From positions 1 through 64,000 of the forward strand of contig JAFLVE010000016.1 of NCBI GenBank assembly GCA_022511445.1: 64,000 bases of DNA, in the 5' to 3' direction. Source of the DNA: Clostridiales bacterium (lineage in GTDB: Bacteria > Bacillota > Clostridia > Christensenellales > Pumilibacteraceae). The notes below the pieces were generated by a model. The model saw only the letters and a list, made by a program, of their open reading frames with translations, was not told the DNA's origin and made no database searches. The position numbers and the translations under genes were made by a program. Positions 1 to 30,759 of this stretch are shown piece after piece. Each line of letters opens with the position of its first letter. The first letter of the stretch is position 1.

Positions 1-3000
1 ATTGCAAAGTAGATTACGACTATTGCAAATATGCTCGCTACCGCCGCAAGTATGATGTCTATTGTTAGTAGCGTCCTGTCAAAGGCGGGTCCGATTGTAA
101 ACTCGTATCTCGCCTCAAGCGTTTCGTATCCGTCAACTACCACGCGCGCGACAAGTATATAATCACCGGCGGTTGTGGGTTTTTCCTTAAACTCTTTGTC
201 GGGATTGTTCTTGTCTATGTACGTGTACTCGACTTTACCTACCGCCGCTTCGCCCTTAGGATCGGGCGCGGTGTCACTATGCTCTTCCGACCAGTCTTCT
301 ATTGTAGGAGACGTATCGTTTACCCAATTGTTTTTGGACAGCTCTACAATGAACTCCGCCCTACTTGTTATCTCTATGGAATCGGGCGCGGAAGCACGGG
401 CTATGACGTAGTACGAGCCTACCTTCTTGGGCGCCTCGTTGCCGAGGGGCATGTCTGTTTCCGCGTCGTAGAATTCGTAGACGATAGTAATGTTAGGGTA
501 ATTGACCGAAGCGGTCGGCACACCCCAGCCGGGTTTATTCTTATCGCCGAGACGAAGGATATCGGAGATAGCTACCGACTGAGCCCACTTAATCTCGGAA
601 AGCCTTACCTCGAATTCCATCTCGCTCGTAAGATTCTGGCAGTACGTGGCTTCCGCCGTCGCAACAACGACGTACTTACCGGGCTTAGTCGGAATTTCCG
701 TGCCGTCGAGCTCCTCGCGCGTGTCGGCCTCGTAGTACTTATATGTAATCTTACTTTCGAGCGTGGTCGACGCCGTAGGTTTTGCCCAGCTGTTTTTCTC
801 TCCGAGGTAAAGCACGGGCGCGATTGTCACCGACTGAGCCCACTTATTTACGCGGTCGTAAATCGTAAGAATGGTGTAACCCCACTCCAGGTCGTCTCCG
901 TGGTCGGCGGCGGCGACGTTTTCTACGTGCGCGTACATCATGTAAATGCCGGGCGCTTTGGGAATGTAAAACGGTCTTGCGTATTTGCCATCGGAAACGG
1001 TAGTAACGTCGTCGCCCTCACCGAGCGCGTCGCCCGTCTTTTGGTACTGATCGTTGACAAACTCCGCAGGATAGAACTTAAAGTACACCTTACCGCGGGC
1101 GGGCGTACCGGTAGGCATTTTGAACGTGCCCTCGATATTTGCCGTCCAGTCCTCGATGTTAGGCGATTCTACCCAATAGTTTTTCACCTCGAGCGAGCCC
1201 TTAGGGAATACCTGGAATTTCCTGGTGGACGAGGTGCCCTTGTACATGCCGGGCGCCGCCTCTACCGATACGACCATAGTGTACCAGCCGATTTCCGCCG
1301 CTTCAAGGTTGTTTGTCGTGACCGTAGTTGCACCGCTGTTCGCGTCGTATGCCGAGCGGAACCATTCGGCGCCCGACGATTGACTCGTAATGACGATTGT
1401 CGTAACGCCGTACGTCGCGCGGCCCTCGGGCATATTCTCGTCCGGGTTAAAGCCGCCGCTGAACCAGGAAGCAATGTTGGGCTCTACAACCCAAGCGTTG
1501 GCGTCCTCGGTTACGTTAAAGGTGGTTTGTGCGTCGAACGCGGCATAGTTGCCGTTTGCGGCGACGTGCACCTTAAGCGTATACTCGCCGGAGGTAAGAG
1601 CGTTGAGCTTATTCTTTATCTCCGCGTCGACGTAGCCGTTGGAATCGAGAGTAAAGCCCGCAATCTTAAGCGTGTCGGCGGCGTAAACGCTGTACGTAAT
1701 CGTGCCGCCCGAACGCGCCTCTCCTACGAACTTATTGGTGATAAGATAGTTGTTCCAGCTCCAATCGCCTACGCCCGGCTGAATCTTGAACGAGTCGAGA
1801 AGCGCGCCTTCGATTGTGATGTAGAATACGTTTTTGTAGATTTTAGCGCTTTCCTCGTCCGCAAGTATGGGCTTGTAGTTATGGGTCGCGGGATCTGCAA
1901 CGACAAACTCCGCCTTGTAAGTACCCACGTTGACGGGCATGCCGGAAATTGCGCTCCAGGACCCGTTATCGAGCTTTTCGTAATACAAGAACTCGACCGT
2001 GCCGTACAGCGCCTTGGCTTCCGCCGCGACTGTCTTGCCGAACGTCCAGGTGTAGGTTTTAGTATCCTCCGTATAAGTCACGTCGTCGCCGACAAAGCAA
2101 GGCTTGCCGTCCTTTTCCCAACCGTTATCGGCGGTCTCGATTGTAAAGGGAACGCGGGTTGTAATAGTGGCTTGCTCGTCGCCGAGCATAGCCATAAGCT
2201 CCTCCTTAGAGGTTGCTTGGTCTACTATGCCGTTCCAGTTATCGTCGGCGGGAGTTGTGATTATCATGATATAGGAGCCGACGTTAAGCTCGTTTGACAG
2301 GCAGTCGCTTACCTCCTTTTTGCCCTTGTCGAAGGAAGAAGTCGTGCTCGTATCGATTGTTATGTACTTGACGACGGCCTCGCTTCCCGCCTCCACAATC
2401 ATGACGATGACGGTGTTGCCGTAGCGCGGCTTTACGCCGAGCCATTCGATATCCGATCCCCACTTCCAATTATGCGTGACGGAAGAGGTGCCCTTTTCGA
2501 CAAGGGTGTTCTCCGGCGCGGGAGCGGGATGAGTATCGTCGCCGTCGTCCCAGGAGTTGTCGCCCGGCGCTATTATAATCTGAAGCGTTACCGTCGCGCC
2601 GTAGTAATCGAGGGTCTCCTTAAGCGTGATTGCAATTGTGTACGGTCCGCTGGCAAGATTCTTAACACTGACCGCAAGCTCCGCGTTAAGCTTGGAAAGA
2701 CTCTTAATTCCGTTAACGGTGACGGAAGTAATATTGTCGCCGCTTAACGTATACGAAAGCTCGAAGTTGTCGATTTCCGCTCCGTCGCCCACCTCGGTAA
2801 TGTACGTGACGGGTTTAAGAGTTATCGCGTCGACGGTTGTGTTAAGCTCGCCGTCTTTGTTCTTTTGCCACTTGCCGCCGACAACGTTGTTTTGAGGAAG
2901 CTCGGTAAACGCGGCGTTGTATTTAAGGATAGTAAGCGAAAGATTCTTCTCCGCGTTGAGCACGGCGTAGTTGGGCGCTTCCGCGAAGATACGCACCGAA

Positions 3001-6000
3001 TACGTAGCGGGAGTCAATTTCTTGAGCTCCGCCTTAAATTCGGTAAACTCAAGACGGGCGTTGCCTATTTGACCGTTGGTGTCCGCATTGAATATGGTGA
3101 AGTAAACCACGCTGCCGTCGGCCTGAGCCTTGATGTCGCCGATAAGCTCTATCCACTTATCCTCGTCTCCGTCTACCTCGTAGCCCTTTAACACCGTGTA
3201 GTAAACATTGGCGGTATCCTTGGGCGAGTGGTCTTTCACCCATTCGTTTGCCGCGAAGTTGACGGTAAACGTGGTCGTATAGATAGAAACCGCGGCATAC
3301 AAACCTTTTACGCTTTCCGCTACTTGTGCCGAAAGAGTATAGCTGCGCTCGCTTGCATTAAGCTCTCCAAGTTTAGCTTTCACACCTTCTTCGTCAAGGT
3401 TGGTGTAGTTTACATTATTGCCGCTGATTGCGTACTTAATATTGCCGAAGAGCACCTCGCCCGCGGTAAACGCACCCTCGTGCATACCGTAGCTAAAGCT
3501 TGTTACCGAAGGAAGAATAGGCGTGCCGTCGGACGCGGTTTTCCAGCCGTTTTCCGCTTTGCTTATCTGGAAGGTCGCCCATCCGTCGACGCCGCCTAGG
3601 CTCGCGCCGCCCTCCGCCTTGGCGTAGAGATGGTACACCCCGTTATTGGAATTGGGTTTTAAGTATTTAAGAAGCTTGATAACCTTTTCGTCGGTTACGA
3701 CGCCGTCTACAAGCTTGATTGCATTCAAAGCGGCGATATCTTCCGCCTTTATGATAACGTTTTCGGCGCCGTCGGCGTCAAAGTCGCCGAGCGTAAGCGG
3801 TTGTTCAAGCGAATTGCCTTTCATAATAGCAAAGGTTACTTCGCCCTTGCTGCGCGCCGAGCCTTGGAACAGGTTGACTGCGGGGTCGTATCCGCTCCAC
3901 TTCCATCCGATAACGCCGGGCATGGTTACCCATTCGTTTACGCCCGCGCCTATCTCGAACAGATAGTAGCCGACTATTCCGCCGTAGTTACCGTCCTTGT
4001 CGTCGGGAACCTCCGCCTTTAACCAATACTTGCCGGCTTCCGCACCGTGGGTCGTCGCCCACACGACGGACCCTGCGGGACCTTCGGTATTTCCTACTTC
4101 CTTATCCTCGTCGCCGGCCGTGATGTCTGCAAATGTATATTCTACCGTATTGGCGCCGAATCTTGCCTGCGACGCGGGGCGCGCGGTAGAGCTACCGAAC
4201 TTCCAGCCGTCTACGTACGGAGCGAGGCTCCACCCGTTCTTCGCCTTTTTGACATAGAAGTCAAAGGTCTTATCTGCGAGCGCGTCGTAGTTTTCGGTCG
4301 AGCCTACGGACACGGTGATCGTGTACGCGCCCTCCAAAGCGTTACGCGCCTTTAGCTTGCTTTCGAGAACGTCCAAGCTGTTTGCGCTGACTTCCTTAAC
4401 GGACGACTGTTTGTTAAGCTCGTAGTCGATAGTCATCTGCATGGCGAGCTGTTCGCGGCCGTTTGAATCGCGGTAAGTAACGGAAAGCGTGGCGGAATCG
4501 CCTTGCGTGGGTATAGGCAGGGAGATGACCGTATCTATATTGGATACTACGTTATCCCATACCCAGCCGAATCTGTTCGCCCAGATATCCTTTTCGGTCT
4601 GCTCCCACTTGTTAAACTCGCTGAGCTCGCCGAACTTTTTGCCTACCGAAAGCGCGGAGTCTTCCTGCCAGCTGTTTTTCGCCTTGCTTATAACAAGCCT
4701 TACGGAGTCGACAAGCGAGGTGTAGGTATCGTCCTCATTCACGATTGCGGTAAGTACGTACGTCTTGGCGCCGTAAACCCTTACGTGCTCGTTGAGGTCG
4801 TCCACCTTCCTTCCGTCGACGGTAAACTCTACCGTGCCGTACAGAGGCTTGAACTTACCGAATATATCGGACAGATCGTCGCCGAAGCTTCTGTTGATAT
4901 CCGTATCGTCATCGGCGGGCGGCGTGCTTGTGCCGTTACCCAGCTTTGACACCCATTCGTTAACGGACTTTTCGATTTTGACGATAACCGAGTATGTAAG
5001 CTCTTGGTGATTGTCGTCGCCGCTTATAAACGCCCTAAGCGTATAGTCGCCGGGATTTTGCTTCTTGAGCGCGGTAATCATCTCCTCCCACGAATCGTAA
5101 GGCGTAGGACGAGCGCCGCTGTCCGCAAGCGTGTATTGAATGCCCTTGCCCCAATCGCCGTAGTTCTTGTCGTCGTTTACTACCGGCTTTTTGGGAGTCT
5201 TTTCGGTCGGGGGATTTTCTCTCTCGTTAAAGTACCAGACGTACTGCAAGCCGTCGGTTAGCGCGGTGGCGGCGTTCCAGGTCGCAGTCTGCTTGCTTAC
5301 CTGCAGGAATCTTATCATAGGCTCGGGCGCCGTGTAATCGCCCGTTGCCGCAATAGTCACGGTCAAAGTGTAGTTGCCCGCGCCAATCGTTTTGGTAAGA
5401 TAGGCGATTAACTCGTCGAAAGCCTGCTCGTTGGGAGACTTACCGTCATGCTCGTTGTAGCGCCCCGCCTCGAACTTTGCTTTTTCATCGCCGTTTTGAG
5501 TTAACGAGTACACAATGGTATTTTCGCCGTACAGGGCTTCGGGCATGGTAAGAAGCGAAGAAGCAAACGAACCCCACTCCCAGTTTACGCTTCCGGGAGC
5601 GAACGAAGCGGTCCATTCGTTTTTGTACTGAGATAGCGTTATCGTGCAGGTCGAGAACAGCTCCACATAGTCGGCGTTATACAAGCCAAGCGCCGTGTCG
5701 AGAAGAGAGCTCGGGGTTACGTTTCTATAGTAGCCGCCGCCGATATAAGCGTTTACGGTAAACGTGCCGTTACGGATTAAGGCAAGCTCTTTTTTGAGAT
5801 CCTCGACGTCGATAGTATATTTGCCGTAGTCGGTGCCCGCTTGATAAATATCGAAGCGCAAAAGGTCGAAGGGACTTCCGCCGCCGATATTGACGTACCG
5901 CACGTCCGACGTGGGAATGGGGAATACGGATATATTCACGCTGCCGTTGCCGATATAGTCCTCGAGTCCCTTTTTGCCGGTACGCGCATTTTCCGACCAT

Positions 6001-9000
6001 TCGGTAGGTATAAGGTTGATAATTATTCTGCACGAGCTGGAAACGCCGCTGTAGTTGGTTGCCGAGTCTATAGTAAAGTTAAGCGTATGCTCGCCCGCGG
6101 AAAGATTTATAAGCCTGTCGTTTAATGCGTCCGCGTCGCTGCAAGCGGCGCCGTCAAGCGTAATAATAAGCTTGTCGTTACCAGCTTTCGCTTTGGGAAT
6201 AACAACCGAAATCGTCTGCTTGCGGAGATACGTCCAGGTGTAGCCGTCGTCCCAATCGACGAGGGTATCGCCTACGTACGAATCTATCCATTCGTTTTGA
6301 ATACTGCTTATATATAGATAGCATTGCTTTTCCGTTAAGCCCTCGTAGTTAGCCGTTTCCAAAACCTTGTACGTTACGATGTAGTTGGTGGCGATAGCGT
6401 TAAGGGAATTGATAAACTTGCCGAACTTAACGGTACCGTTAAGGCTGTCGTAATCGTAAGTACCGCCGTCGGTATCGCTAACTCTTATATCGATAGGAGC
6501 GTCGTAGTCCTTTACGGAGATATTCAGGTTGTCGTCGACTATGCTTCCGAAGGTGCCCGTGTATCTTTCCTCGAGCGTTTCGTTCCACTGCGGCTTTGCG
6601 CGCAAAACGTTAACGACAAGCGTGTAGGAAAGCGACGAGTAGCTCTTGTCGCCCGGAACATAGTCGGCAACGATAGTATACGCGCCCGCAACGTACTGTC
6701 CGTCGTCTGCGGTAAGCCTGCTCTTCAGCCAGGACACCACTTCGTCGCGGGTGCCCTTTTCGCCGGAGCGAGTCACTTCTTCCTCTAAATAGCTGTTCCT
6801 ATAAGTCAGGGTGTACTTAGTCACGCCGTCATCTTTGCCGACGGGGATATCCAGTCCGTCGAACGACGCGCCCATATCGTCTGCGTTGTTTACGTAATTG
6901 AACTCGACCGTTTTGGAAGTCGCATCGCCCAGCTTATCCTGGTTTTTCCACAAGCTCTTTGTGCCGGTAATGATAAGCTCGGTCTTAACCTTAAGTCCTT
7001 TATAGTTATCCGTCTCCGCAACGACGGTATAGAATACGTACGCCCCGTTATCGTTGGCGCCGAGACTCTTAATCCACTCTATAAGCTCCGCAACGGAGGT
7101 TACGGGAACGCCGTTGTGCTTGAGGGCGTCCTCGCCGCTCTCGTCGTAGAATACAACGTCGCCGTGCTTTGCGGAAGGCGGAGTTGCGTTTTGTATCGCG
7201 TTTACGATATTGTCCTTTTCGGAATACTGAGCGGAGTATCTGTCGCCGAGCTTGTTGTACAGCTCGTTATCCGCCTGCTTTACCGTGACGGTGTATACCG
7301 TTTCAAACTCGTTGTAGTTGATAAGGTCGTAGCCGCTGCCCGCCGCGGCGGAAACGGTAATTACGTACCTGCCCGCGTTGACGCGAGGCTCTTCGCTTGT
7401 CAGGTATTTAACAAGCTCGCCAAACTCGGTGTAAGGCGAAGAGGACGCACCGCCGTCGGTGCTTAAGTGGTAAACGAGCGTTACGGCGTTGTTGCTAAGG
7501 TCATGCGCCGCGGGCCTTATAAGCTTACCGCTCTTGACCGAAGCGTCGTCGTCCCATACCCACTCTACGTCGGCGGGAGTTTTTCCGTCGTCCCAAACGA
7601 AGTCCGCCTTGGCGATATGTACGGTGACCAAACGCTGAACGGTAACGTAGTTGACGCATTCCACCTTGATTGTTACTTGGTAGTCGCCTGCGTTTTGCTC
7701 GCGGAGCTTGGCGAGCATATCGCCGAATTTTTTGTACGAGTCTATGCCCGTAATGGAGTAAGTGAATTCGATTTTCTCCTTATCGCTGTCCAAAACGGTT
7801 TTGACTTCGATATCTTTGAAGTCCTTCGAGGTGCTCGGACCCCAGACCCACTCTACTCTACCGTCGGGCTCGGTTACAACCTCGAACTCGGCGAAGTCGA
7901 CCTTGATAAGCGTCGATTTTGTAAGCGAGGTGTAGTCGGCGGTTTCGGCAACCGCAACGGTTATCTTGTACTCGGTATCGCTCGCCGCAAGCGCTTTAAG
8001 CGCTTTGAGAAGATTTTGAAGGTCGCTTGCGTTTTTCACGCCGCCCGTAACGCTTACGGAAATAGGGTCGCCGACGGGCGCGTTAGTGCCGGATACGACA
8101 ATGGTGTAAGTAAGACCGTTACTCATATCCAACGCCGCGGCGTTATAGAGCTTGGAGGTTTCGAGGCTGTCCTTACCCCAGGTCCACTCCAGTCTGTCTT
8201 CCGGCTCGTTGCCGTTGTCCCAGTCGTTTGCATGTCTCGAGACGGTGAACGGCACGGTAATGCTAAGCGCCTTGTAATTGGTGTTTTCGGGCGCGGTCGC
8301 AATCATTATATAATTGCCGGGGTGAGCCTTGGTAAGATCGGTCACTTCCTCGCCGTCCTGCGTCCAAGCGCCGTTTACGAACTGCGCGGGATAGTACTTG
8401 TAGGTTATCTCGCCCGTATCGACGGTGGCGGTCGAGGTTGTAAGCTTTCCTGTGGTCTTGCCGTCGTACACCCAGCCTTCTATCGAGGGCGGGTTGCCCT
8501 TCCAAGAGTTTTCCGCCTTTTCTACGGCAAAGCGAACGTTTTGCGTAACCGCCTCGAAGTTGTTGTTCTCGTCGTCCGCCGCCCTTGCCAAAAGGTTGTA
8601 GCTGCCTGCGTCGAGGTTGTTGAGCTTATTCAAAAGCTCTTCCGCGGTAAGCCCGATATAGCCCGTTACGTCCGTATCGATATTGCCGCCCGCGCCTACG
8701 GTCTGAACGGTGTACTTGACAACGCCGAAGTTGGCCTCGCCGCCCGTGAACAGAGAAGCGTTAAAGCTGCCGTACACCCAGCCGCTTATCTGCGTGTTCT
8801 TGTTGCTCTTCCAAGCGTTTGACGCAGTCGATATAACAAACTCGGTGCAAGAATACAGCTCGGCGTAATCGGTAGTGCCGCGCACATACGCTACAAAGTA
8901 ATAGGTATCGCAGTCGAGGCTGTTAAGGTAAGCCGTGACTGTCATCTGAACGCTACCCACGCTTACCGTGTCGGTGATATTGTTAAACGTTACGCCGCTG

Positions 9001-12000
9001 CCGCTCTCTTTTGCTTCGAGGAATGCCTGCGAGGAATCGATTCTTGCGGTAAAGATGCCGTAATCGACCTGTTTATTGTCCAAAGGATAGCTCGGAACGC
9101 CCGCCGCAAAGTTGGACGACGCTTCAAACTGCGAATACTTAAACGAGGACAGCCTCGGTGAATTCGTCCAGGAATTGGCGCGCTGCGATACGTTAAACGT
9201 TATGGGATATTCGAGGTCCTCGTAGTTATCGGTACCTTCGAGCGTTACCGTTAACGTATACGTGCCGAACTTCAGTCCGTTAAAGAAGGAGACAAGGCTC
9301 GACACTTGGTCGGAGGTAAACGGACTGCCATGCGCTACTCCGCCGCTAGTCAGCGTGTAGGTAATCTTTTTGGACGGGTCCTCGTCGAACGCCGCAACGC
9401 CCGCGGTGAAGTTGCCCACGGCAAAGTTGCTGTACACCCAACCCGTCATGCCCGGAGTGGTTGTCCAGCGGTTGTCCGCCTTAGATACGACTACCGTCGT
9501 TTCGTAGGTAAGCTCTTCGTAGTTGTCCGTACCCTCGAGTTCCGCCGTGAGAATGTAGCTCGCGACCTTTAATGCGGTAAGGTATTGTTTAAGCTCGGTT
9601 GTCCCGATGTCGGACGCCTTGAACGTCTTCAATAGCTGTCCGGCATGGTTGTCGTCGCCCTCTACGCTGTAAAGCTTATAGACAACGTCGCCGCCGCCGG
9701 GGTGCTTGGAAACGCCTGCGCGGAATAGATTCGTCGTAAAGCCGCGGTACGCCCAGCCAGTAAGAACGGGCATGGTCGTCCAGGAGTTGGCGCTTTTAGT
9801 AATGCCGAACGAAATATCGTAAGTAAACTCGTTGTAGTTGTCGTCGCCCGCAACGGAAATGCCGACGGTGTAGTTGCCGACGCCCAAACCGTTGAGCTTA
9901 TTCGCAAGATCGACCGTGTTCGCGTAGAAGGTAAGTACGACGTTCTTGCTTTCGTCCTCGGTTTTATACACCTCGTACTTAACGCCGTTTACGCCGCCGA
10001 ATACGGGCACGCCTGCGATAAAGTCGGTCGAGGCATAGTTGCCGTACGTCCAGCCCGTTATTCTCGGCGTAGTAGTCCAGGAGTTGGACGCCTTGGAAAC
10101 CTTAAAGGAAATTTCGTACTTAAAGTCGTTATAATTAACGCCGTCGCCGTTAAGGGTTATATCTATCGTGTAGTCGCCGACGCCCAAACCGTTGAGCTTT
10201 GCCTTAAGCTCCTCGGTTATACTGCCCGAAGTAAAGGTTATCTCGGTGCCGCGCACCTTGTAAACAACCTCGCTTTCCGCTCCGAGCACGGGCACGCCCG
10301 CGGTAAAGCCGGACTCGGTAAAGCTGCCGTACACCCAACCCACCATTCTCGGCGTGGTCTTCCAAGCGTTGTCCGCCTTGGATACGACTACCGTCGTTTC
10401 GTAGCTCAAGTCGGCATAGTTTTTATCGCCCTCGAGGAACGCGTAAAGCGTGTATGATTTAGGCGGCAAATTATTCAGTTTATTAAACAGCGTCTCTCCC
10501 GCCAAATCCGCCGCGGACGTCCATTCGGCAATAGGCGATTTGCCTTCCCCTTTTGCGCCGTCGTAAAGCTCGTATTTTATCTGCTTTCCTGCGGCGACGT
10601 ATTCGGCAACGCCCGTGCGGAACAAGGCTGTGTTAAAGCCGCGGTACGCCCAACCGGTAAGACCGGGCGTAGTAGTCCAGGAGTTGGACTTGCTCGATAC
10701 GGTAAACGTTACGGTGTCGGTAAAAGCCGGATAGCCGGTGCCCGCCGCGATAGATATATCTATCGTGTAGCTGCCGACCGACAGCTTGTTAAGCTCCGCC
10801 GCAACGGATTGAATGGTGACGTCTCCGCCGAACTCTATGTTTTGATTGCGCACGACGTACTTAACCGCTTTCTCGCCGCCGAAAATAGGCACGCCCGCGG
10901 TAAAGTTACTCACGTCAAAGCCGTCGTATATCCAGCCCAACATATTAGGCTTGGTTACCCAACCGTTGGACGCTTGGCTTACGACTACCGTGGTGGTGTA
11001 CACCAAGTCCTCGTAGTTATCGGTGCCCTCGAGCTTAACGTAGAAGGTGTACGACTTGGGCGCCAACTGCTTAAGCTTATTAACAAGCTCCTCGCCGGAC
11101 ATATCCTCCGCGAAGAACGGACCTACCGCCTTTTCCGCGCTCTTGCCCGCCTCGGTGTCTGGATTTACGTTTTCGCCGACGTAGAGCGTGTACGTAATTT
11201 TTTTGTTATTCTTGTCCTCGTCGAAATTTGCGGCGCCCGCGCGGAAATTGGCGGCGGTAAAGCTGCCGAAGTCCCAGCCCGTCATGCCCGGAGTGGTCGT
11301 CCAGGTGTTAGTCGCCTTCGACACCACTACCGTCATGGAATAATCGAGGTCGCCGTAATCGCCGGTGCCTTCGAGAAGCGCGTAGAAGGTGTACCTGCCC
11401 GCGCCGAGCTTGTTATTGATTTCGTCGCCGCTCGGCATGGTAGATTGAGTGAACGGACCGAAAACAATCTTCGCGCTCGAATCCGCGGCGGAGGGATCGA
11501 CGTTATCGCCGCTGTAAATCGTGTATTTTACGTTTTCCTGCTTGCCGTATGCGGGTATGCCGGCGCGGAAGTTTTCCGCGGTGTAGCCCTTATACGGACC
11601 GCCGGTAAGAGCGGGGGTGGTCGTCCAGCGGTTGCTTATGGATATAACGTTAAAGGTGGAATAGCGCGCGTCGGGCGTCAAGAACTCGCTCACGTTGCCG
11701 TCCGCTCTCGGCGCAATGTAGCTGCCGAGGTAGTACGTTCCCGCGGGGAGCGCCTTTAACACCTTTGCTATGGTATTGTTTCCGTCGTCGACTATCTTGT
11801 TGTCCTTAATGGTAAAGTACGCGCCGTAAGAGGTGTCGTCGATACCCGCTTGGGGCGTTTCGCTTATCTTCACCCATGTATAAGTCCCGTTTTCCTCGTC
11901 CTTCGTGCCTATGCGGAAATATATATCCGCGCCGGTAAACTTGAGACCGTATCTTATTACGTTGACGTTGATATTAAATCCGTCGTACGCCCAGGAGGAA

Positions 12001-15000
12001 ATGGAGGGCGCGACAGTCCAATCGTTTACCGCGGGAACGATATCGAAGTAGACGAAAAGCTTGGTGCCGTCGTCGGAAATCTTAAAGTATTTCTCGTAGA
12101 ACGCTTTAATCTCTTGCTCGGTCGGAATCCCGTCGGACACTATACCGTCCGTGGGCAAGCCTTTTATACTCCAGCGCGCAAGCACGGGATCGTTAAGCGT
12201 AAGCGTAACCGAAGCGCCCTTTCTTACATTGATATAATCCTTTTTGGGCGTGCTCTCCCCGAGCGCGTCGTCAAACGAGGAACGGTAGTAGCGGCTGTAC
12301 GGAACCTCGGTATACACGGGCGAGCCGGTATACGTAACGTTTTGGAAGTATTGAGGATGCTCCGTTTCGACGATATATTCGTAGATGTCAAGGAGCTTCA
12401 TCTCGGTGTAAACGGTTGTTCTGAAGCCGTGAAGCGTTCTGTCGGACTCGCTCGCGCCGCCTACCGTAACGTAGTTTTTGGCTTCTATGCAGTAGTAAAC
12501 GGTGTACGTGCTTGTGGAAACAAGGGACTTTCTCATCGTTTCGTAGTTGACGTACAAAGCGCTTCCCGAGCCCTCGAGGTTATACGTAAACAAAACCTCG
12601 CTCGCATAATAATCGGACTTTGCTTTGTCGGTTGCCCAATAACCCGTACTGGCATTTATATCGCCGTTTCGCACGCTCTCGAGCGCCGCTTTTTGCGCGT
12701 CTATGCTGTCGTGCAGTTTTTCGGCATACTCGTTGGTGCCCTCGACAACCAAGGGATAAGCGTTAACCCACTTATCTATTTCCTTTTGAGAGTCGGGCTC
12801 GGGCGTGACCAAAGCGCCGCGGAGCGTTTCGTGAATGCTCTTTAATGTGCCGCCGTCGAAGGGCTTGGGCAAAACGTTAATGGTATACGTTGCGCCCACC
12901 GCGCCGTACGATTTGTCCGTGCCGTCTTCCTTTACCGAAACGGCGCTGCCGTGAAGGACAAGCGTGTACGTTCCGGCGGGCATGGAGGAATTTATGTAAT
13001 AAGGCAAGCGGCTTACAAGCTTATCGTTCGCCTTGGAGGGTTTGCCGTCATCGCCCAATACGTAGACGTTTTCGCCCTGGGTTATAATCTCGGCGTTTTT
13101 GCCGTCGACTGGCGCATACGATAAATCGAATGTGATTGTGCCTACGTCGTTACCGTACTTAAGCACGGGAGTTGCAACCGAAATGCCGTCGGTGTAAGTA
13201 AAGGTGGCGTTTGCAAGCGGCGAGTACGAAGTATCGCTGTCCTCGTGCCCTTCCTCTACAAACATGTTCGTCTGCATGACGATATACCACCGCTTTGTTA
13301 TACGGAAGGAATAGTCGCCCTTGCCCGCAACGGTAAGTCCCCTTACCGAATCGGACATATCGTTGTAATTGGTATCTTCGTTATCGCCGTAATAGAATAT
13401 ATAGTTGGTTTGATTGACAACGCCGGTGGTGTACGGCACCTGAACGACGAACGTTGCGGTGTAAGAGCCGGAGTTTACAAACGAAAGTCCGTTTCTCGAC
13501 AGAATGTCGTAGTGCGGATTGGTTATCGTGGAAGTGCCGCCGTCCGCGCTCGGCTTTTCGCCCACAAGCTTTATCGTGATGTTGGGGTTTTCCTTGTTCT
13601 CGCCGTTGTAGAAGGCGTAGGCGTTGGTAACCTCTTTTATATCGGGCTCCTCGTAGCTGTCTCCCTTTTGGGAAAGATACCAGCCCTCGTTGTAGCCGTA
13701 CAGCGTGGTTTTTTCGCCGAGAAGAAGATTGGAGTCGTCGTCGCCGTAGGCAAATGCGGGAACGTCGTCCAAGCTCATAAGGTTTATCTTGGCGCGGTCT
13801 ACAACAACGTCCGCGGCAAAATACTCGGGATACTTATCGAGGAATTCTTCCGACCACTCGCCCCACTTGGAAGCAAGCATTATATTAAACTTGTAAGAGC
13901 CGGCGTTTTTAACGTAGGTCGGTTTGGAAGGAGTTTGATTGTCGGGGAAAAGGAAGCTCGCAAGCGACACGGCGTAGTCGTTGCCGAGTCCGAGCACCGT
14001 CATATAATCTATATACTCCGTAGCGCCGTCGCCTATCTTTTTGGTTACGTTTCCGGAGAAGCTGTACTCCTTATCGTAAGTAAAGTGTGCGCCGTCCTCC
14101 GTGCTGTCGTAGGTGCCGTTGCTGTCGAAAGTCTTATTAAAGATATTTTTCGGCCTTGCGATATTTTTGGTGTAAAGGTCGATTTTTGTTGTGGAAGATC
14201 CGAGGGTAATCGTGCCTTCGTACGAAGCTTTTTTCTCGGCGGTATAAGCGTCGCTACCGTACCAGACGGTAGAGCTCATATTGGACAGAAGGGGCGACGT
14301 ATGTTTGTTCGATTCATCACCTACTTCCCATTTACCGTCCCACTGCTTAACGTTATTATACGTATATCCCGTCAGCCTCTTGGTATAGGTAAATTGTTTA
14401 TCGGTAGCCGTAAACTCGGGGTTTTCCACGTAGTCGGTATCGTTAAAGAAGCGGGTCGCCATATCGCTGTATCCGCCTTTAATCGAAACGCTGTAATCGG
14501 GGTCCTCGTTATCTACGTGCGCTATTATAGGTATTTGGTAGTGCACGTTACCCGTCGGCCACGGGATATTACGGTGATTTGTTTCGTACTTCTTGTAAAG
14601 AGCGTTATCCTCAAAAACAACGTGACGGGTACCTACCGTTCCGAAAGCGTTGGCGGCGATAGTAAAGTAGTCCGTTGAGGAATAAGAGCCGTCGGCGCCC
14701 TTCTTTTCATGGAAATATAACCACTGCACCAAGGTGCTGTCGGAATTGCCGGCAAAGGCACTGGCGCCGATTGTGGTTGCGTACGTTTCGAAATATTCCA
14801 CGTGAGAGCCGTTAAACGCAGACGTGCCTATTGCGGTACAAGAGGCGGGAGTTATCGCCCTTCTGCACCAAGTGCCGTTCGCAAAGTTATCGGCTATATC
14901 GTAAGTAACGTTTGCGCCTGCGGTAAACGGATTTTTGTATTTATTTGCGTCGCAGTCGAGATAATCGTATCTTATTCCCTTTCTGCGGTCGCTATTCTCG

Positions 15001-16559
15001 TTAAAATCACCGCTGTCGGGGAATATAAAAAGTGAATTAGGCGCTTCGCCCGTTTCGCCCGAAAAACCGACGGCCGACCACCGTTCGGAAGTACCCGAAC
15101 CGGTGCGAGTAAACAGAAAACCTCTCCGTCCGTTATCCAAAACCCCGTTTTCGGGCGCACCCCCAAACACGTACAAGTCGTTATTTGTCGTAGGGAGACC
15201 GAGATTATTCAGCGAGGCCGCTCCTTCTTCTCTTTCGACGTGCAACAGTTTATCGCAACCTATAAACGGTTTCCTATTATCGGTATTTGTATTGTCGTTA
15301 TATTGGGGCAGCGTTGTCAAACTACTCGGAATGGATATGTGCACCAATTGACCGAATTGATAGTAAGCGGCTACGCCTACCGACGTAACGGTTTTCGGAA
15401 TATTGGTATCTACTACTTGCGTGCATTTAAAGAATGCGTAGTGACCGATTTTGGTTACGCCGTCGGGCAAAATCATAAAGCGCATATTGTCGCAGCCCTG
15501 GAATGCGCTCTTTCCGATATCGAGCTCCATTGTTCTATTGGCACCGGGTGAAGGATTGGACACCTCCGCAACCGAAGCTAAATACGTGCCGCTTGCTATT
15601 TCTTTAAGCTGGCTGCCTTCGGGGAAGAAAACGCCGGCAAGACGCTCGCGCGGTTGCCAAAAGTAAGGCTCCGAGTCTCTGCCCAGCCTGTTTGTAATAA
15701 AGCAACCGAAATCGGTATACTTGGGGATACCGTTGCCGGTGCGCTTTACCTCTTGACCGCCGGTACTTATGTTGGTTTGACTGTTATAAATCGCGGTCAA
15801 AGTCCCGTTTACTGTCGCCACAAACGCGGCGCTGCCCTGACCGACCATGGTAATATTCTTAGGTACGATTAAAGCATATCTTACCGACGTGCCAAAGTCC
15901 TGACTGACGCTGGCAAACTGACAATAAATACCCGTAGGCGAAGCGACATCGGGATTTAGGGAGCCGGAGATAATCTCGCCGTTTTCCGCTATTTTAGTAT
16001 TGATGACGTTTTTGTCCGCATCGTAACTCGGATCCACCGACCGTATATCGGGCTTCCATCCGAAAAGAGTACGTCCGCCGTACGTCGTGTTTGCATCGGT
16101 ATATATGTAGTTTTCAACGTCGAAATACTGTTCCGCCGGGATACCGTAAATATTGTTGGTGTAAATCTTGTTTCCGTCCGAATCATAAACAAACGTGCCG
16201 TCCGCATTTCTTACGGCGTGCGCGTCATCCTGATAATATTGGAACTTTCCGTTAGAAACAAGCTGATCCTCGGCGTTTCTGTAAAACAGGTCGTTACGGT
16301 CGATTTCACCGTCGCCGTTTCTGTCTACAACGTCGATAGGACCCAACACGAAATCCGCGGGGTAACGTTCCATAAGGTCGAGTATCGTAACGCGTTTGCT
16401 CTCGGCGTCTTCCGCATTAAGCGGCTTTTTATTCATTCCGAATAAATCCGACTCGGAACCGAAAATCATTCCGACGCCTATAGATAACGCTAAGAGGAGC
16501 GCGACGGCTAAGGATAGCGCCGCAATAACAATTCTCTTGACGAAATTAGTCTTTTCCAT
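1..16559 (-). CDS. Giant secreted/surface repeat protein, 3' end truncated by window edge (>=5,519 aa); N-terminal signal peptide, EF-hand-like loop, BspA-like LRR region, about 38 Ig/MBG-like repeats, C-terminal TM helix at the edge
   Basis: ATG at 16559-16557 (MEKTNFVKRIVIAALSLAVALLLALSIGVGMIF...) preceded by GGAGG. No minus-strand ORF in the supplied track within 1-16559 lies in this frame (top coordinate = 2 mod 3), as expected if the frame has no internal stop. Hand translation at many points and at the left edge (...AGDYILVARVVVDGYETLEARYEFTIGPAFDRTLLTIDIILAAVASIFAIVVIYFA) is in the same frame. Confidence 0.93.
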   Translation of the reverse strand, partial: MEKTNFVKRIVIAALSLAVALLLALSIGVGMIFGSESDLFGMNKKPLNAEDAESKRVTILDLMERYPADFVLGPIDVVDRNGDGEIDRNDLFYRNAEDQLVSNGKFQYYQDDAHAVRNADGTFVYDSDGNKIYTNNIYGIPAEQYFDVENYIYTDANTTYGGRTLFGWKPDIRSVDPSYDADKNVINTKIAENGEIISGSLNPDVASPTGIYCQFASVSQDFGTSVRYALIVPKNITMVGQGSAAFVATVNGTLTAIYNSQTNISTGGQEVKRTGNGIPKYTDFGCFITNRLGRDSEPYFWQPRERLAGVFFPEGSQLKEIASGTYLASVAEVSNPSPGANRTMELDIGKSAFQGCDNMRFMILPDGVTKIGHYAFFKCTQVVDTNIPKTVTSVGVAAYYQFGQLVHISIPSSLTTLPQYNDNTNTDNRKPFIGCDKLLHVEREEGAASLNNLGLPTTNNDLYVFGGAPENGVLDNGRRGFLFTRTGSGTSERWSAVGFSGETGEAPNSLFIFPDSGDFNENSDRRKGIRYDYLDCDANKYKNPFTAGANVTYDIADNFANGTWCRRAITPASCTAIGTSAFNGSHVEYFETYATTIGASAFAGNSDSTLVQWLYFHEKKGADGSYSSTDYFTIAANAFGTVGTRHVVFEDNALYKKYETNHRNIPWPTGNVHYQIPIIAHVDNEDPDYSVSIKGGYSDMATRFFNDTDYVENPEFTATDKQFTYTKRLTGYTYNNVKQWDGKWEVGDESNKHTSPLLSNMSSTVWYGSDAYTAEKKASYEGTITLGSSTTKIDLYTKNIARPKNIFNKTFDSNGTYDSTEDGAHFTYDKEYSFSGNVTKKIGDGATEYIDYMTVLGLGNDYAVSLASFLFPDNQTPSKPTYVKNAGSYKFNIMLASKWGEWSEEFLDKYPEYFAADVVVDRAKINLMSLDDVPAFAYGDDDSNLLLGEKTTLYGYNEGWYLSQKGDSYEEPDIKEVTNAYAFYNGENKENPNITIKLVGEKPSADGGTSTITNPHYDILSRNGLSFVNSGSYTATFVVQVPYTTGVVNQTNYIFYYGDNEDTNYNDMSDSVRGLTVAGKGDYSFRITKRWYIVMQTNMFVEEGHEDSDTSYSPLANATFTYTDGISVATPVLKYGNDVGTITFDLSYAPVDGKNAEIITQGENVYVLGDDGKPSKANDKLVSRLPYYINSSMPAGTYTLVLHGSAVSVKEDGTDKSYGAVGATYTINVLPKPFDGGTLKSIHETLRGALVTPEPDSQKEIDKWVNAYPLVVEGTNEYAEKLHDSIDAQKAALESVRNGDINASTGYWATDKAKSDYYASEVLFTYNLEGSGSALYVNYETMRKSLVSTSTYTVYYCIEAKNYVTVGGASESDRTLHGFRTTVYTEMKLLDIYEYIVETEHPQYFQNVTYTGSPVYTEVPYSRYYRSSFDDALGESTPKKDYINVRKGASVTLTLNDPVLARWSIKGLPTDGIVSDGIPTEQEIKAFYEKYFKISDDGTKLFVYFDIVPAVNDWTVAPSISSWAYDGFNINVNVIRYGLKFTGADIYFRIGTKDEENGTYTWVKISETPQAGIDDTSYGAYFTIKDNKIVDDGNNTIAKVLKALPAGTYYLGSYIAPRADGNVSEFLTPDARYSTFNVISISNRWTTTPALTGGPYKGYTAENFRAGIPAYGKQENVKYTIYSGDNVDPSAADSSAKIVFGPFTQSTMPSGDEINNKLGAGRYTFYALLEGTGDYGDLDYSMTVVVSKATNTWTTTPGMTGWDFGSFTAANFRAGAANFDEDKNNKKITYTLYVGENVNPDTEAGKSAEKAVGPFFAEDMSGEELVNKLKQLAPKSYTFYVKLEGTDNYEDLVYTTTVVVSQASNGWVTKPNMLGWIYDGFDVSNFTAGVPIFGGEKAVKYVVRNQNIEFGGDVTIQSVAAELNKLSVGSYTIDISIAAGTGYPAFTDTVTFTVSSKSNSWTTTPGLTGWAYRGFNTALFRTGVAEYVAAGKQIKYELYDGAKGEGKSPIAEWTSAADLAGETLFNKLNNLPPKSYTLYAFLEGDKNYADLSYETTVVVSKADNAWKTTPRMVGWVYGSFTESGFTAGVPVLGAESEVVYKVRGTEITFTSGSITEELKAKLNGLGVGDYTIDITLNGDGVNYNDFKYEISFKVSKASNSWTTTPRITGWTYGNYASTDFIAGVPVFGGVNGVKYEVYKTEDESKNVVLTFYANTVDLANKLNGLGVGNYTVGISVAGDDNYNEFTYDISFGITKSANSWTTMPVLTGWAYRGFTTNLFRAGVSKHPGGGDVVYKLYSVEGDDNHAGQLLKTFKASDIGTTELKQYLTALKVASYILTAELEGTDNYEELTYETTVVVSKADNRWTTTPGMTGWVYSNFAVGNFTAGVAAFDEDPSKKITYTLTSGGVAHGSPFTSDQVSSLVSFFNGLKFGTYTLTVTLEGTDNYEDLEYPITFNVSQRANSWTNSPRLSSFKYSQFEASSNFAAGVPSYPLDNKQVDYGIFTARIDSSQAFLEAKESGSGVTFNNITDTVSVGSVQMTVTAYLNSLDCDTYYFVAYVRGTTDYAELYSCTEFVISTASNAWKSNKNTQISGWVYGSFNASLFTGGEANFGVVKYTVQTVGAGGNIDTDVTGYIGLTAEELLNKLNNLDAGSYNLLARAADDENNNFEAVTQNVRFAVEKAENSWKGNPPSIEGWVYDGKTTGKLTTSTATVDTGEITYKYYPAQFVNGAWTQDGEEVTDLTKAHPGNYIMIATAPENTNYKALSITVPFTVSRHANDWDNGNEPEDRLEWTWGKDSLETSKLYNAAALDMSNGLTYTIVVSGTNAPVGDPISVSVTGGVKNASDLQNLLKALKALAASDTEYKITVAVAETADYTSLTKSTLIKVDFAEFEVVTEPDGRVEWVWGPSTSKDFKDIEVKTVLDSDKEKIEFTYSITGIDSYKKFGDMLAKLREQNAGDYQVTIKVECVNYVTVQRLVTVHIAKADFVWDDGKTPADVEWVWDDDASVKSGKLIRPAAHDLSNNAVTLVYHLSTDGGASSSPYTEFGELVKYLTSEEPRVNAGRYVITVSAAAGSGYDLINYNEFETVYTVTVKQADNELYNKLGDRYSAQYSEKDNIVNAIQNATPPSAKHGDVVFYDESGEDALKHNGVPVTSVAELIEWIKSLGANDNGAYVFYTVVAETDNYKGLKVKTELIITGTKSLWKNQDKLGDATSKTVEFNYVNNADDMGASFDGLDIPVGKDDGVTKYTLTYRNSYLEEEVTRSGEKGTRDEVVSWLKSRLTADDGQYVAGAYTIVADYVPGDKSYSSLSYTLVVNVLRAKPQWNETLEERYTGTFGSIVDDNLNISVKDYDAPIDIRVSDTDGGTYDYDSLNGTVKFGKFINSLNAIATNYIVTYKVLETANYEGLTEKQCYLYISSIQNEWIDSYVGDTLVDWDDGYTWTYLRKQTISVVIPKAKAGNDKLIITLDGAACSDADALNDRLINLSAGEHTLNFTIDSATNYSGVSSSCRIIINLIPTEWSENARTGKKGLEDYIGNGSVNISVFPIPTSDVRYVNIGGGSPFDLLRFDIYQAGTDYGKYTIDVEDLKKELALIRNGTFTVNAYIGGGYYRNVTPSSLLDTALGLYNADYVELFSTCTITLSQYKNEWTASFAPGSVNWEWGSFASSLLTMPEALYGENTIVYSLTQNGDEKAKFEAGRYNEHDGKSPNEQAFDELIAYLTKTIGAGNYTLTVTIAATGDYTAPEPMIRFLQVSKQTATWNAATALTDGLQYVWYFNERENPPTEKTPKKPVVNDDKNYGDWGKGIQYTLADSGARPTPYDSWEEMITALKKQNPGDYTLRAFISGDDNHQELTYSVIVKIEKSVNEWVSKLGNGTSTPPADDDTDINRSFGDDLSDIFGKFKPLYGTVEFTVDGRKVDDLNEHVRVYGAKTYVLTAIVNEDDTYTSLVDSVRLVISKAKNSWQEDSALSVGKKFGELSEFNKWEQTEKDIWANRFGWVWDNVVSNIDTVISLPIPTQGDSATLSVTYRDSNGREQLAMQMTIDYELNKQSSVKEVSANSLDVLESKLKARNALEGAYTITVSVGSTENYDALADKTFDFYVKKAKNGWSLAPYVDGWKFGSSTARPASQARFGANTVEYTFADITAGDEDKEVGNTEGPAGSVVWATTHGAEAGKYWLKAEVPDDKDGNYGGIVGYYLFEIGAGVNEWVTMPGVIGWKWSGYDPAVNLFQGSARSKGEVTFAIMKGNSLEQPLTLGDFDADGAENVIIKAEDIAALNAIKLVDGVVTDEKVIKLLKYLKPNSNNGVYHLYAKAEGGASLGGVDGWATFQISKAENGWKTASDGTPILPSVTSFSYGMHEGAFTAGEVLFGNIKYAISGNNVNYTNLDEEGVKAKLGELNASERSYTLSAQVAESVKGLYAAVSIYTTTFTVNFAANEWVKDHSPKDTANVYYTVLKGYEVDGDEDKWIELIGDIKAQADGSVVYFTIFNADTNGQIGNARLEFTEFKAELKKLTPATYSVRIFAEAPNYAVLNAEKNLSLTILKYNAAFTELPQNNVVGGKWQKNKDGELNTTVDAITLKPVTYITEVGDGAEIDNFELSYTLSGDNITSVTVNGIKSLSKLNAELAVSVKNLASGPYTIAITLKETLDYYGATVTLQIIIAPGDNSWDDGDDTHPAPAPENTLVEKGTSSVTHNWKWGSDIEWLGVKPRYGNTVIVMIVEAGSEAVVKYITIDTSTTSSFDKGKKEVSDCLSNELNVGSYIMIITTPADDNWNGIVDQATSKEELMAMLGDEQATITTRVPFTIETADNGWEKDGKPCFVGDDVTYTEDTKTYTWTFGKTVAAEAKALYGTVEFLYYEKLDNGSWSAISGMPVNVGTYKAEFVVADPATHNYKPILADEESAKIYKNVFYITIEGALLDSFKIQPGVGDWSWNNYLITNKFVGEARSGGTITYSVYAADTLKIAGFTLDSNGYVDAEIKNKLNALTSGEYTLKVHVAANGNYAAFDAQTTFNVTEDANAWVVEPNIASWFSGGFNPDENMPEGRATYGVTTIVITSQSSGAEWFRSAYDANSGATTVTTNNLEAAEIGWYTMVVSVEAAPGMYKGTSSTRKFQVFPKGSLEVKNYWVESPNIEDWTANIEGTFKMPTGTPARGKVYFKFYPAEFVNDQYQKTGDALGEGDDVTTVSDGKYARPFYIPKAPGIYMMYAHVENVAAADHGDDLEWGYTILTIYDRVNKWAQSVTIAPVLYLGEKNSWAKPTASTTLESKITYKYYEADTREELDGTEIPTKPGKYVVVATAEATYCQNLTSEMEFEVRLSEIKWAQSVAISDILRLGDKNKPGWGVPTASVNYPNITIVYEFYDAETDMPLGNEAPKKVGSYYVIARASAPDSIEITSRAEFIVELSKNNWVNDTSPTIEDWSEEHSDTAPDPKGEAAVGKVEYTYIDKNNPDKEFKEKPTTAGDYILVARVVVDGYETLEARYEFTIGPAFDRTLLTIDIILAAVASIFAIVVIYFA

Positions 16560-16698
16560 AATCTGCCTCCAAAAGTAACTTCGACTTAGTAGCCACCGTC
16601 GAAAACAGCCGAACGGGTCATATATATATTCCACGCCGGTATAGAAACTTGCTTACGGTAATTATTGTATGTCCGTAGCAAAAAATATTGTGCTATAT

Positions 16699-16727
16699 AT
16701 TATATAAGCCGTTAATACACGTGTCAA
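16699..16727 (-). promoter_or_regulatory. Consensus sigma-A type promoter for the giant gene
   Basis: Minus strand TTGACA (16727-16722), 17 nt spacer, TATAAT (16704-16699); about 130 nt upstream of the ATG. Confidence 0.85.
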
Positions 16728-25501: not shown

Positions 25502-26659
25502 TTAATCTCTCGAAAGATAACCTATCCAATATCTTATGTTGAGTATGGTGTCGCACACGCCGAATATCGAGCAGACGAGGAAAACCACCGCAAAAACGTT
25601 GGCGGCAAAGATAAGCGCCAACACGGTTAACGCCGCTATCCTGCCCTTGCCGTTAAACAAAGTCGCTATATACACGGCAAGCGAAATAAACGCAAACTCG
25701 CTCGGCACGGTAACAAACGCGTGCATGACGGTAGCCGACACGTTTTCGAGCCTGCCCGCAATGCCGAGTATAATCGACGCGATAAACGCAGGCAAAAGGA
25801 AAACAAGCAAATACATTCGCGGGAAACGCATGTCCCTTATTTTTATTCCGTCGCGGTACGCTCCGCCGAGAGCGCGGCGCGAATTGTTTATTTCCTTTTC
25901 GGTAACGTTCTCGTCGAACGGGCTTGCCGTCAAGCCGTTTATAAGCGCCGCGAAAAAGAAGGCTATCAAAGCGATTATTCCGCCGAAGTGCAAGCAGTAA
26001 TAAAGAACGTACCCTTCCGTCTCCTCGAGCACGTGCTCCGCGGCGTACTCCGTTGCGACCTTTTTGTAATCGGGGTCGTCCTCGTCCACGCGCTCGTCTC
26101 TGTCCACGTCGCCGTTTTCGTACAGCGAGCGAATAAGCCCGTCGAAAAACGGCTCGTCGGCATGCGCCGAAACGTACGAGGCGGTAACCTCCGCAACCGA
26201 AGCGTGTTCGGTAAGAGCGACGACGCCGCACCCGCCGAAGGCGCCGAGTACGCACATCACGTACACCACCGCGGCGCGGAGCAGGTATTTTTTAAGCTGC
26301 ACGGCAAAGACGAGCCCTATAAACGCTACCGAAACAAAACACACGTACACTACGCTCATAACGTTGTAGTTAAGAGTAAGCGAAAGCGTTCCGTACGATA
26401 CAATCGCAAATAAAGGCAGGTACAACCCGAAACGGCGGTAAGTAAAGTACAAAAGCACGAGCGCAACCGGCATAAGCAAAATACCGATAAGCGGAAAATA
26501 TCCCGCCGCGATAAGCGCCGCGGGAGCGAGCATATACAAAACAAGCTCCCACAACGGGACCTTTTTTTGCGGCAGGATTCGATTTTTTTCTATCCGCTTG
26601 TACCGTTCGGCGCGCTTTGTTTTAGCGTCGACGACGTATTTTTTTACCGCTGTTGGCAT
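25502..26659 (-). CDS. Multipass membrane protein of unknown function
   Basis: Start re-assigned to MPTAVKKYVVDAKTKRAERYKRIEKN (26659); the 158 residues upstream in the track ORF run antisense to the plus-strand DUF1540 gene. Several hydrophobic helices. Confidence 0.7.
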   Translation of the reverse strand: MPTAVKKYVVDAKTKRAERYKRIEKNRILPQKKVPLWELVLYMLAPAALIAAGYFPLIGILLMPVALVLLYFTYRRFGLYLPLFAIVSYGTLSLTLNYNVMSVVYVCFVSVAFIGLVFAVQLKKYLLRAAVVYVMCVLGAFGGCGVVALTEHASVAEVTASYVSAHADEPFFDGLIRSLYENGDVDRDERVDEDDPDYKKVATEYAAEHVLEETEGYVLYYCLHFGGIIALIAFFFAALINGLTASPFDENVTEKEINNSRRALGGAYRDGIKIRDMRFPRMYLLVFLLPAFIASIILGIAGRLENVSATVMHAFVTVPSEFAFISLAVYIATLFNGKGRIAALTVLALIFAANVFAVVFLVCSIFGVCDTILNIRYWIGYLSRD

Positions 26660-26791
26660 ACCGATAATAATATAACATATCGGCACGGGCTTTGCAACCG
26701 CAAACCGAAAAAAGTAATCGGAAATAAGTCGAATAATAACGCCGTCTTTGGCAATACTACGAGTATATACAGATATTATGGAGGAAATAAA

Positions 26792-27088
26792 ATGTACGAT
26801 CTTAAATGCGGTCAAAAGGATTGCAGGTACAACCACGGCTACTGCTGCTGCGCCAAGGATATAGCGGTTTCGGCGGGCACAGACTGCACCACCTACGAAA
26901 AAAGCGGCAATAACTACGGCACCGAGGCGGCGGCGGAATTTACTAAGCCCGACAACTCGGTAGATACCTGCGTAAGCTGCAACGCACCCTGCCTTTTTAA
27001 CCACTCGGCGCGCTGCATAGCAAACGGAATAACCGTATCCACCGCCGACGACGGCAACGCGGAATGCCTTACTTTTATTAAAAAGTAA
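26792..27088 (+). CDS. DUF1540-like Cys-rich protein with two Cys clusters
   Basis: ATG with GGAGG upstream; MYDLKCGQKDCRYNHGYCCCAKDIAVSAGTDCTTYE...CVSCNAPCLFNHSARCIANGITV. Confidence 0.85.
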   Translation: MYDLKCGQKDCRYNHGYCCCAKDIAVSAGTDCTTYEKSGNNYGTEAAAEFTKPDNSVDTCVSCNAPCLFNHSARCIANGITVSTADDGNAECLTFIKK

Positions 27089-27189
27089 GCGTTCATTCGA
27101 TACCGTTATAAAACGGGCGCGGCAAAAGCGCACTTCCTATTTACAATTAAAAAACCGAATTATATAGAGTTGTGCTTTCAAGCGAAGGC

Positions 27190-30200: not shown

Positions 30201-30759
30201 CCACGTACATAACGCCGTTTATCATGTAGCCGACGGCGCCGTCTACCTTCGTCCATGTAAACAATCCCGTGTCGTTGTCGAAGGTGCAATGCTCTTTGTC
30301 GTATATGATAGCTTCGCCTTCGACAAACTCAAAGGTCTTGCTTACGCTTTGGCTGTCGGAGGCCTTTGCCTTGCACTTTACCGTAAGCGAAAAGGACGTC
30401 GCGTCGACCATGGCGCTGACGTCGAATATATAGCACTCGGTTTCGCCGTCGTAATTGGGATACTTAGTCGCAACGGTATCAAGCGTCCTTAACGTAGCCG
30501 ATCCGGTGCCCCAATCCTGAATAATCTCGTAATACGTGACGCCCGATTCCGAGCAGTCGGGTACATACAGCTCCTTCCATCGCAAATCGAGGCGCACCCA
30601 TTCGGGAGCCTTCAAATCGGAAGCATCGGAAACGGGAGGATCGCCATTATCACCCCTATCCCCGTCACCGAATCCGCCGAAAAGTGAACACCCGGCGATA
30701 CAGCTCAAACTTAATACCGCCAAAACGACCAATATCAATATCAGGAATTTCTTTTTCAT
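27280..30759 (-). CDS. Large secreted lipoprotein with FnIII/Ig-like repeats
   Basis: MKKKFLILILVVLAVLSLSCIAGCSLFGG lipobox; repeated 'V..L.W..V.GA.GY.V' type beta-sandwich segments. Confidence 0.8.
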   Translation of the reverse strand: MKKKFLILILVVLAVLSLSCIAGCSLFGGFGDGDRGDNGDPPVSDASDLKAPEWVRLDLRWKELYVPDCSESGVTYYEIIQDWGTGSATLRTLDTVATKYPNYDGETECYIFDVSAMVDATSFSLTVKCKAKASDSQSVSKTFEFVEGEAIIYDKEHCTFDNDTGLFTWTKVDGAVGYMINGVMYVEEPKYTVPSTVNSITVAPLYDTNKIGVPVTVSFGSVRPDIKYDAQTERFIWSDVADSYIMEITDGDETHTFELTETSIHYVPVTDHIYVKLTTVTALRRNGVTTGELDCLPRVAAISVDKFSRLVSWTAIPGISEYDVTVDTGDGEPTYKRLSTNSITLENVSVGTVTVKIKAFDSSRPTMISFYNEFTVRVFPAVQALSPSLSYDSENEKLTLSFDTDADTVEKYTVMLTMNTYTTTDVYPDETDAARFEVDLAPYRMGNILITRDFKDGDGTYCYVSAGDLSFYTKSVIYIPAPEVHLIDDNADYTSGRAFKIGVKYPTELAGIRGTLSLSYSYSYTSRTVTMSADREITFPLANSAQKLTVNFSSFATGSNMQMFTDGFETTVSSLSVVSISADAQKLSWTEAIGATGYIVEELIGGQYTEVQRGADTEYLHGIDTHGYTHMYRVIAVGDESNPFIFDSYTDDYNVMKLGKPYVSRFTAEGKITFTAATDSTIVTVLDGTAVTLTDAVIRNALTGKTSATLLTYATRENEPNTTYIDSDTDTYTFSRIPDVDIGGLNLKVNAATGTVSWSEPENADDCTRLLYRKTSEAEEYTLYKECDDIASELDGSELPYGLYELSVRPASRRDGNTFYMYYGDVVSDTFRKDGVRSVELLADGEGFAIDGFIASGDYNVSWAISSNYEHNKSYTFAMGDSIVISQNADFQRLVMSGFQRSTYTLTFNVDYGDADAILGADKTLKASGYPVPLTIKESSVGDFSGKYSYVERQYNSQPVQIAVTLTPDDYVLKSIESYVVFYRVNSGTVSETPGNEVTVTVSGYHNIQRFYLGIKSDKFTEEDGAAVFYRSTDVSFSTGFNWYDVALQEAVSPTATNVAHDSSNKKVSFSVTMNGMSEYFNGEKFTFEYLAEDGTWITACQYTLTSNTKRFDVTFNYSAVPKATSDGQISIRMRWDERTMDGVKYEASAWSFITITLS

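What the first reader, a model, noticed from the sequence alone, without database searches (positions are those of the whole stretch)
150..12060. About 38 degenerate tandem Ig/MBG-like repeats in one polypeptide
Hand translation shows successive units such as SNSWTTTPRITGWTYGNYASTDFIAGVPVFGGVNGVKYEV...LNGLGVGNYTVGISVAGDDNYNEFTYDISFGITK, repeated roughly every 95-115 aa. Units 2-10 (about 9.1-11.7 kb) are the most alike. Units nearer the C-terminus are more diverged, with different W..P..W spacing. This gradient suggests recent amplification in the N-proximal part. The array could form a stalk projecting an N-terminal LRR head.
Basis: partly seen in the sequence, partly recalled or inferred. 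Interest (0 to 1): 0.72.

Follow-up and report, generated by a model that had tools for sequence, protein, structure and literature searches.

The report
Giant Ig-repeat bacterial surface stalk
A gut-type Clostridia bacterium encodes a protein of more than 5,500 residues with about 37 immunoglobulin-like beads in a row, probably a long membrane-anchored arm on the cell surface whose bead number changes between related species, with the youngest duplications near the tip and a conserved base.

Summary
One minus-strand ORF (ATG 16559, at least 5,519 aa, cut by the contig end at base 1) carries 37 degenerate ~100-aa units at 12026-90. An AlphaFold model of two units (pLDDT 95.7) is tandem Ig-like sandwiches. 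The sequence passes no Pfam Ig/MBG cut-off and is distantly Big_3_5-like. The protein has a signal sequence, a short LRR_5 segment, a ~700-aa conserved head and a C-terminal transmembrane anchor. It has no LPXTG; no sortase was found in 37 family genomes.

The age-gradient idea is largely right, but "recent" is too strong. Head-proximal units U02-U09 keep excess synonymous identity (0.56 vs 0.42 shuffled; 0/500), the base units none. No pair exceeds 55% protein or 72% whole-unit DNA identity, and TRF finds no unit-scale array. The C-terminal units are not decayed copies: most match position-specific, colinear orthologues in other species. Length varies by head-proximal duplication and by en-bloc gain or loss of an eight-unit cassette (U13-U20 here). 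Head and anchor have different closest paralogues, so parts are probably exchanged.

Best reading: a sortase-free, membrane-anchored, periscope-like adhesin stalk of the Pumilibacter family. New variant of a known kind; no function was tested.

The parts
16699..16727 (-). Consensus promoter TTGACA-17 bp-TATAAT
   Evidence: read (position by hand count)
16557..16570 (-). GGAGG ribosome-binding site and ATG start
3..16559 (-). Giant ORF, 5,519 aa seen, C-terminal few residues cut by the contig end
16446..16559 (-). N-terminal signal sequence (by eye: basic start, long hydrophobic stretch)
   Evidence: same pattern in relatives
15300..15518 (-). LRR_5 (BspA-type) match, residues 348-420
12018..14120 (-). 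Conserved head region shared by LRR-bearing and LRR-less paralogues; fold unresolved (pLDDT 67)
11634..12026 (-). Unit U01, matches the first units of relatives' arrays
9177..11633 (-). Units U02-U09, youngest zone (excess synonymous identity, closest relatives mostly within the same protein)
8229..9176 (-). Units U10-U12
5622..8228 (-). Units U13-U20; homologous to an eight-unit cassette present or absent as a block in relatives
90..5621 (-). Units U21-U37, old membrane-proximal units, most with colinear orthologues in relatives
3..77 (-). C-terminal transmembrane helix; relatives end ...FAI[RK]RYKEN

Best explanation
A secreted, membrane-anchored surface arm. Inferred working: the signal sequence sends the protein through Sec, the C-terminal helix with a basic tail (tail seen in relatives) holds it in the membrane, and 37 Ig-like beads (about 4 nm each from general knowledge, so roughly 150 nm if extended) carry the N-terminal LRR-plus-head outward to bind a partner, probably host mucus, a glycan or another bacterium. 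Shown here: the ORF, the units, the Ig-like model, the LRR_5 match, the conserved anchor, the lack of a detectable sortase, and the way arrays differ between species. Inferred: secretion, extension, projection and adhesion. Length is tuned over evolution by tandem duplication near the head and by block gain or loss in the middle, while the base and anchor stay conserved.
For: units; 47/51 Ig-like fold; 10/18 LRR_5; 27/28/33 conserved last unit, TM helix and basic tail without LPXTG; 65/68 no sortase in 37 family genomes; 23/27 the same architecture in most genomes of the genus, ORFs up to about 5,500 aa without stops; 42/44/76/77 growth zone, colinear base and cassette; 38 other surface proteins (Listeria-Bacteroides repeats, an M60 peptidase) beside relatives' genes.
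Against: No binding partner, expression or surface location was tested. The head model is of low confidence and its fold search gave no usable match. A single TM helix may not hold such a long arm under load. The LRR match is short. Absence of a PF04203 sortase does not exclude another anchoring enzyme.
Confidence: 0.7

Rival explanations
1. The array is itself the ligand-binding or matrix part: many different Ig units bind glycans or self-associate (BAP-like biofilm protein), and length follows from valency rather than reach.
For: Base units are individually conserved between species, which a plain spacer would not need; giant Ig-like BAP/BLP proteins of Acinetobacter affect biofilm and adherence (PMC4647330).
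Against: A conserved N-terminal head and C-terminal anchor fit a projecting arm; conservation of base units may only reflect folding and avoidance of like neighbours.
Confidence: 0.2
2. It is an S-layer or cell-envelope scaffold protein, packed along the surface rather than projecting.
For: Foldseek also lists Bacillus Sap S-layer Ig-like domains; promoter with perfect consensus hexamers.
Against: Only a general Ig-fold match; the anchor is a TM helix, and no SLH or other wall-binding domain appeared in the Pfam scan of the protein.
Confidence: 0.06
3. The length and chimeric pattern are assembly artefacts of metagenome bins.
For: The gene is cut at a contig end and most genomes are MAGs.
Against: Long open frames without stops recur in many independent species, including a named strain assembly (Pumilibacter muris), with colinear units; the repeats here are too unlike for short-read collapse.
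Confidence: 0.04

Closest known systems
Periscope Proteins (review PMC9704523)
   Same: N-terminal functional region, rod-like single-chain repeat stalk, C-terminal cell tether; repeat number differs between relatives
   Different: Periscope repeats are highly identical at the coding level and in Gram-positives are typically sortase-anchored; here repeats are 17-55% identical and the anchor is a TM helix
Acinetobacter BAP/BLP giant Ig-like proteins (PMC4647330)
   Same: Giant arrays of diverse 80-110 aa Ig-like modules with changing module composition
   Different: Gram-negative system with its own terminal regions; no sequence relation was tested here
BspA-type LRR_5 surface proteins
   Same: LRR_5 match of 65.1 bits, cut-off 27.7
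   Different: The LRR is a small part of a giant stalk protein
Pfam Big_3_5 (PF16640)
   Same: Ig-like fold; 36 of 62 two-unit sequences match weakly, best E 2.2e-10
   Different: No match at E<=0.001 in this genome; a relative scored 22.1 bits against a 35.5 cut-off

Membership tests
Periscope Protein class | Stalk of tandem repeats that fold individually and form a rod | tested here: inconclusive
   two-unit AlphaFold model, pLDDT 95.7, pTM 0.83 supports folded units; rod form of the whole array is inferred
Periscope Protein class | Tandem repeats highly identical at coding level | tested here: not met
   at most 55% aa and 72% whole-unit DNA identity; no unit-scale TRF array
Periscope Protein class | Repeat number varies between strains | not testable with these tools
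   one genome per species held; differences seen between species only
Sortase-anchored wall proteins (MSCRAMM type) | LPXTG-type motif and a sortase in the genome | tested here: not met
   relatives' C-termini end in a TM helix plus basic tail without LPXTG (this gene's own last residues are missing); PF04203 absent in own and 36 other family genomes
BspA-type LRR (PF13306) | Score over Pfam cut-off | tested here: met
   65.1 bits vs 27.7
Big_3_5 (PF16640) | Score over Pfam cut-off | tested here: not met
   none at E<=0.001 in own genome; 22.1 vs 35.5 in a relative
MBG domains (Pfam) | Score over Pfam cut-off | tested here: not met
   no MBG match for the window protein at E<=1; MBG_2 in 2 of 62 sequences, best E 0.0066
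BAP (biofilm-associated protein) | Sequence relation to BAP and role in biofilm | not tested
   considered from PMC4647330 only

The most novel reading that the evidence does not exclude
The stalk grows in one direction: new Ig units are born by duplication in a zone next to the head, while units toward the membrane become individually fixed and conserved, and heads and anchors are exchanged between paralogous giants in a lineage that lacks sortases.
Probability: 0.35. Interest if true: 0.6.

Novelty: new variant of a known kind. Interest (0 to 1): 0.42.

Why it matters
It shows a family of very large surface proteins anchored by a membrane helix in a bacterial family where no sortase is found, and it offers a readable record of how such arrays lengthen: head-proximal duplication, block gain or loss, and a conserved base. 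It gives a testable alternative to the periscope model, in which near-identical repeats recombine within a population.

Tried and rejected
MBG membership: rejected on scores. Recent strain-level amplification: rejected on identity. PDB sequence search with the unit profile gave nothing below E 0.05. Head model of 701 residues: low confidence, fold search uninformative. Synteny by the upstream amylase gene did not identify orthologues. Strain-level copy number could not be examined, since one genome per species is held. Paper searches found no description of giant proteins in Pumilibacter, within the held library only.

Full report
What is there. The window holds one minus-strand ORF from ATG 16559 to the contig end. 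A GGAGG site lies 6 bases before the ATG and a TTGACA-17-TATAAT promoter about 140 bases upstream. The seen protein has 5,519 residues and ends inside a hydrophobic helix; relatives continue for a few residues with I[RK]RYKEN or similar.

The repeats. A profile seeded on the 10 clearest units (U02-U11) and iterated over the protein gives 36 matches at domain E<=0.01; filling by spacing gives 37 units, residues 1512-5490, window 12026-90. Unit ends were set by hand from these matches. U02-U09 are the most alike, up to 55% aa identity; most other pairs are near 20-35%. TRF reports no unit-scale array, and local DNA matches reach 82% over 111 nt.

Fold and family. AlphaFold2 on U06-U07 with 62 rows gives pLDDT 95.7. 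Foldseek returns tandem Ig-like and cadherin-like sandwiches, including SraP, Internalin K and Sap, at modest TM-scores. No Pfam repeat family passes its cut-off in the window protein; the closest is Big_3_5, seen in relatives and below its cut-off there. No solved chain matches by sequence below E 0.05.

Head and anchor. LRR_5 covers residues 348-420. The region 14120-12018 is shared with paralogues that lack an LRR match; its model is poor. The last unit and TM helix are conserved across giants. PF04203 sortase was not found in this genome or in 36 others of the family, while other families of the order have it.

Relatives. Units occur in 17 of 19 other genomes of the genus and in several genera of the family, and rarely and weakly elsewhere in the class. 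Named records include Clostridiales MAGs and Pumilibacter muris, which is how the taxonomic placement was made; the genome of the window itself is unnamed. This genome has a second giant on contig C1 with the same units.

Age gradient. In U02-U09 the third base agrees at 0.557 of shared four-fold codons, against 0.417 in shuffles of the same stretch (0 of 500 reach it). U13-U20 give 0.442 vs 0.386 (16/500), U21-U28 0.412 vs 0.377 (55/500), U29-U37 0.373 vs 0.365 (205/500). U10-U12 give 0.71 on only 31 sites. Pairs share units, so the counts are not independent. Among 16 giants, the head-proximal third has z above 2.5 in 8, the middle third in 1 and the membrane-proximal third in none; the giants are related, so these are not 16 independent cases, and the four giants of the LRR-bearing family in other species show no young zone. 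Best matches within the same protein fall by array quarter: 20/109, 15/102, 7/105, 1/96.

Base and cassette. Against G015_C3, 18 window units have reciprocal best partners in strictly the same order. An 840-residue block of G005_C71 matches G015_C15 at 72%, G005_C70 at 56% and the window at residues 2799-3685 of the 5,550-residue frame at 32%, and is absent as an 812-818 residue block from G004_C23. Presence or absence as one block is the simplest reading; direction was not tested.

Exchange of parts. The N-terminal 840 residues match the LRR-bearing family at 41-53% (segments), and the LRR-less family does not match there. The head tree puts this protein outside the LRR-less family (whose clade has 100/100) and nearest the LRR-bearing one by branch length, but that fork itself is unresolved. 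The anchor tree places it with its own-genome paralogue C1 and G001_C22 (95/91), apart from the LRR-bearing family. Within G015 the window head is closer to C15 and most of the stalk and anchor closer to C3. Exchange or gene conversion is inferred; different rates could contribute.

Conclusion. The finding is real and so is the age gradient, but the duplications are old on a strain scale, and the base is conserved rather than degraded. The most likely role is a membrane-anchored adhesin arm. That role is inference from architecture.

Noticed in passing
G000:C1 (L055:3548-19999, minus strand): A second giant ORF of at least 5,484 aa with the same unit type and the same TM sequence, without an LRR_5 match in the N-terminal part scanned.
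   Followed up: partly
own genome, many contigs: LRR_5 matches 72 times in about 18 reading frames of a 1.86 Mb genome.
   Followed up: no
window 27280-30759, minus strand: 1,159-aa protein with a lipoprotein-like signal (by eye) and no Pfam match at E<=0.001.
   Followed up: no
window 25502-27133, minus strand: 543-aa protein, hydrophobic with several likely membrane segments, no Pfam match at E<=0.001.
   Followed up: no
L065, L066, L079, downstream of the giant gene: Neighbouring ~890-aa proteins with Listeria-Bacteroides repeats.
   Followed up: partly
L070:11928-16367: An M60 (enhancin-like) peptidase gene follows the giant gene in one relative.
   Followed up: no
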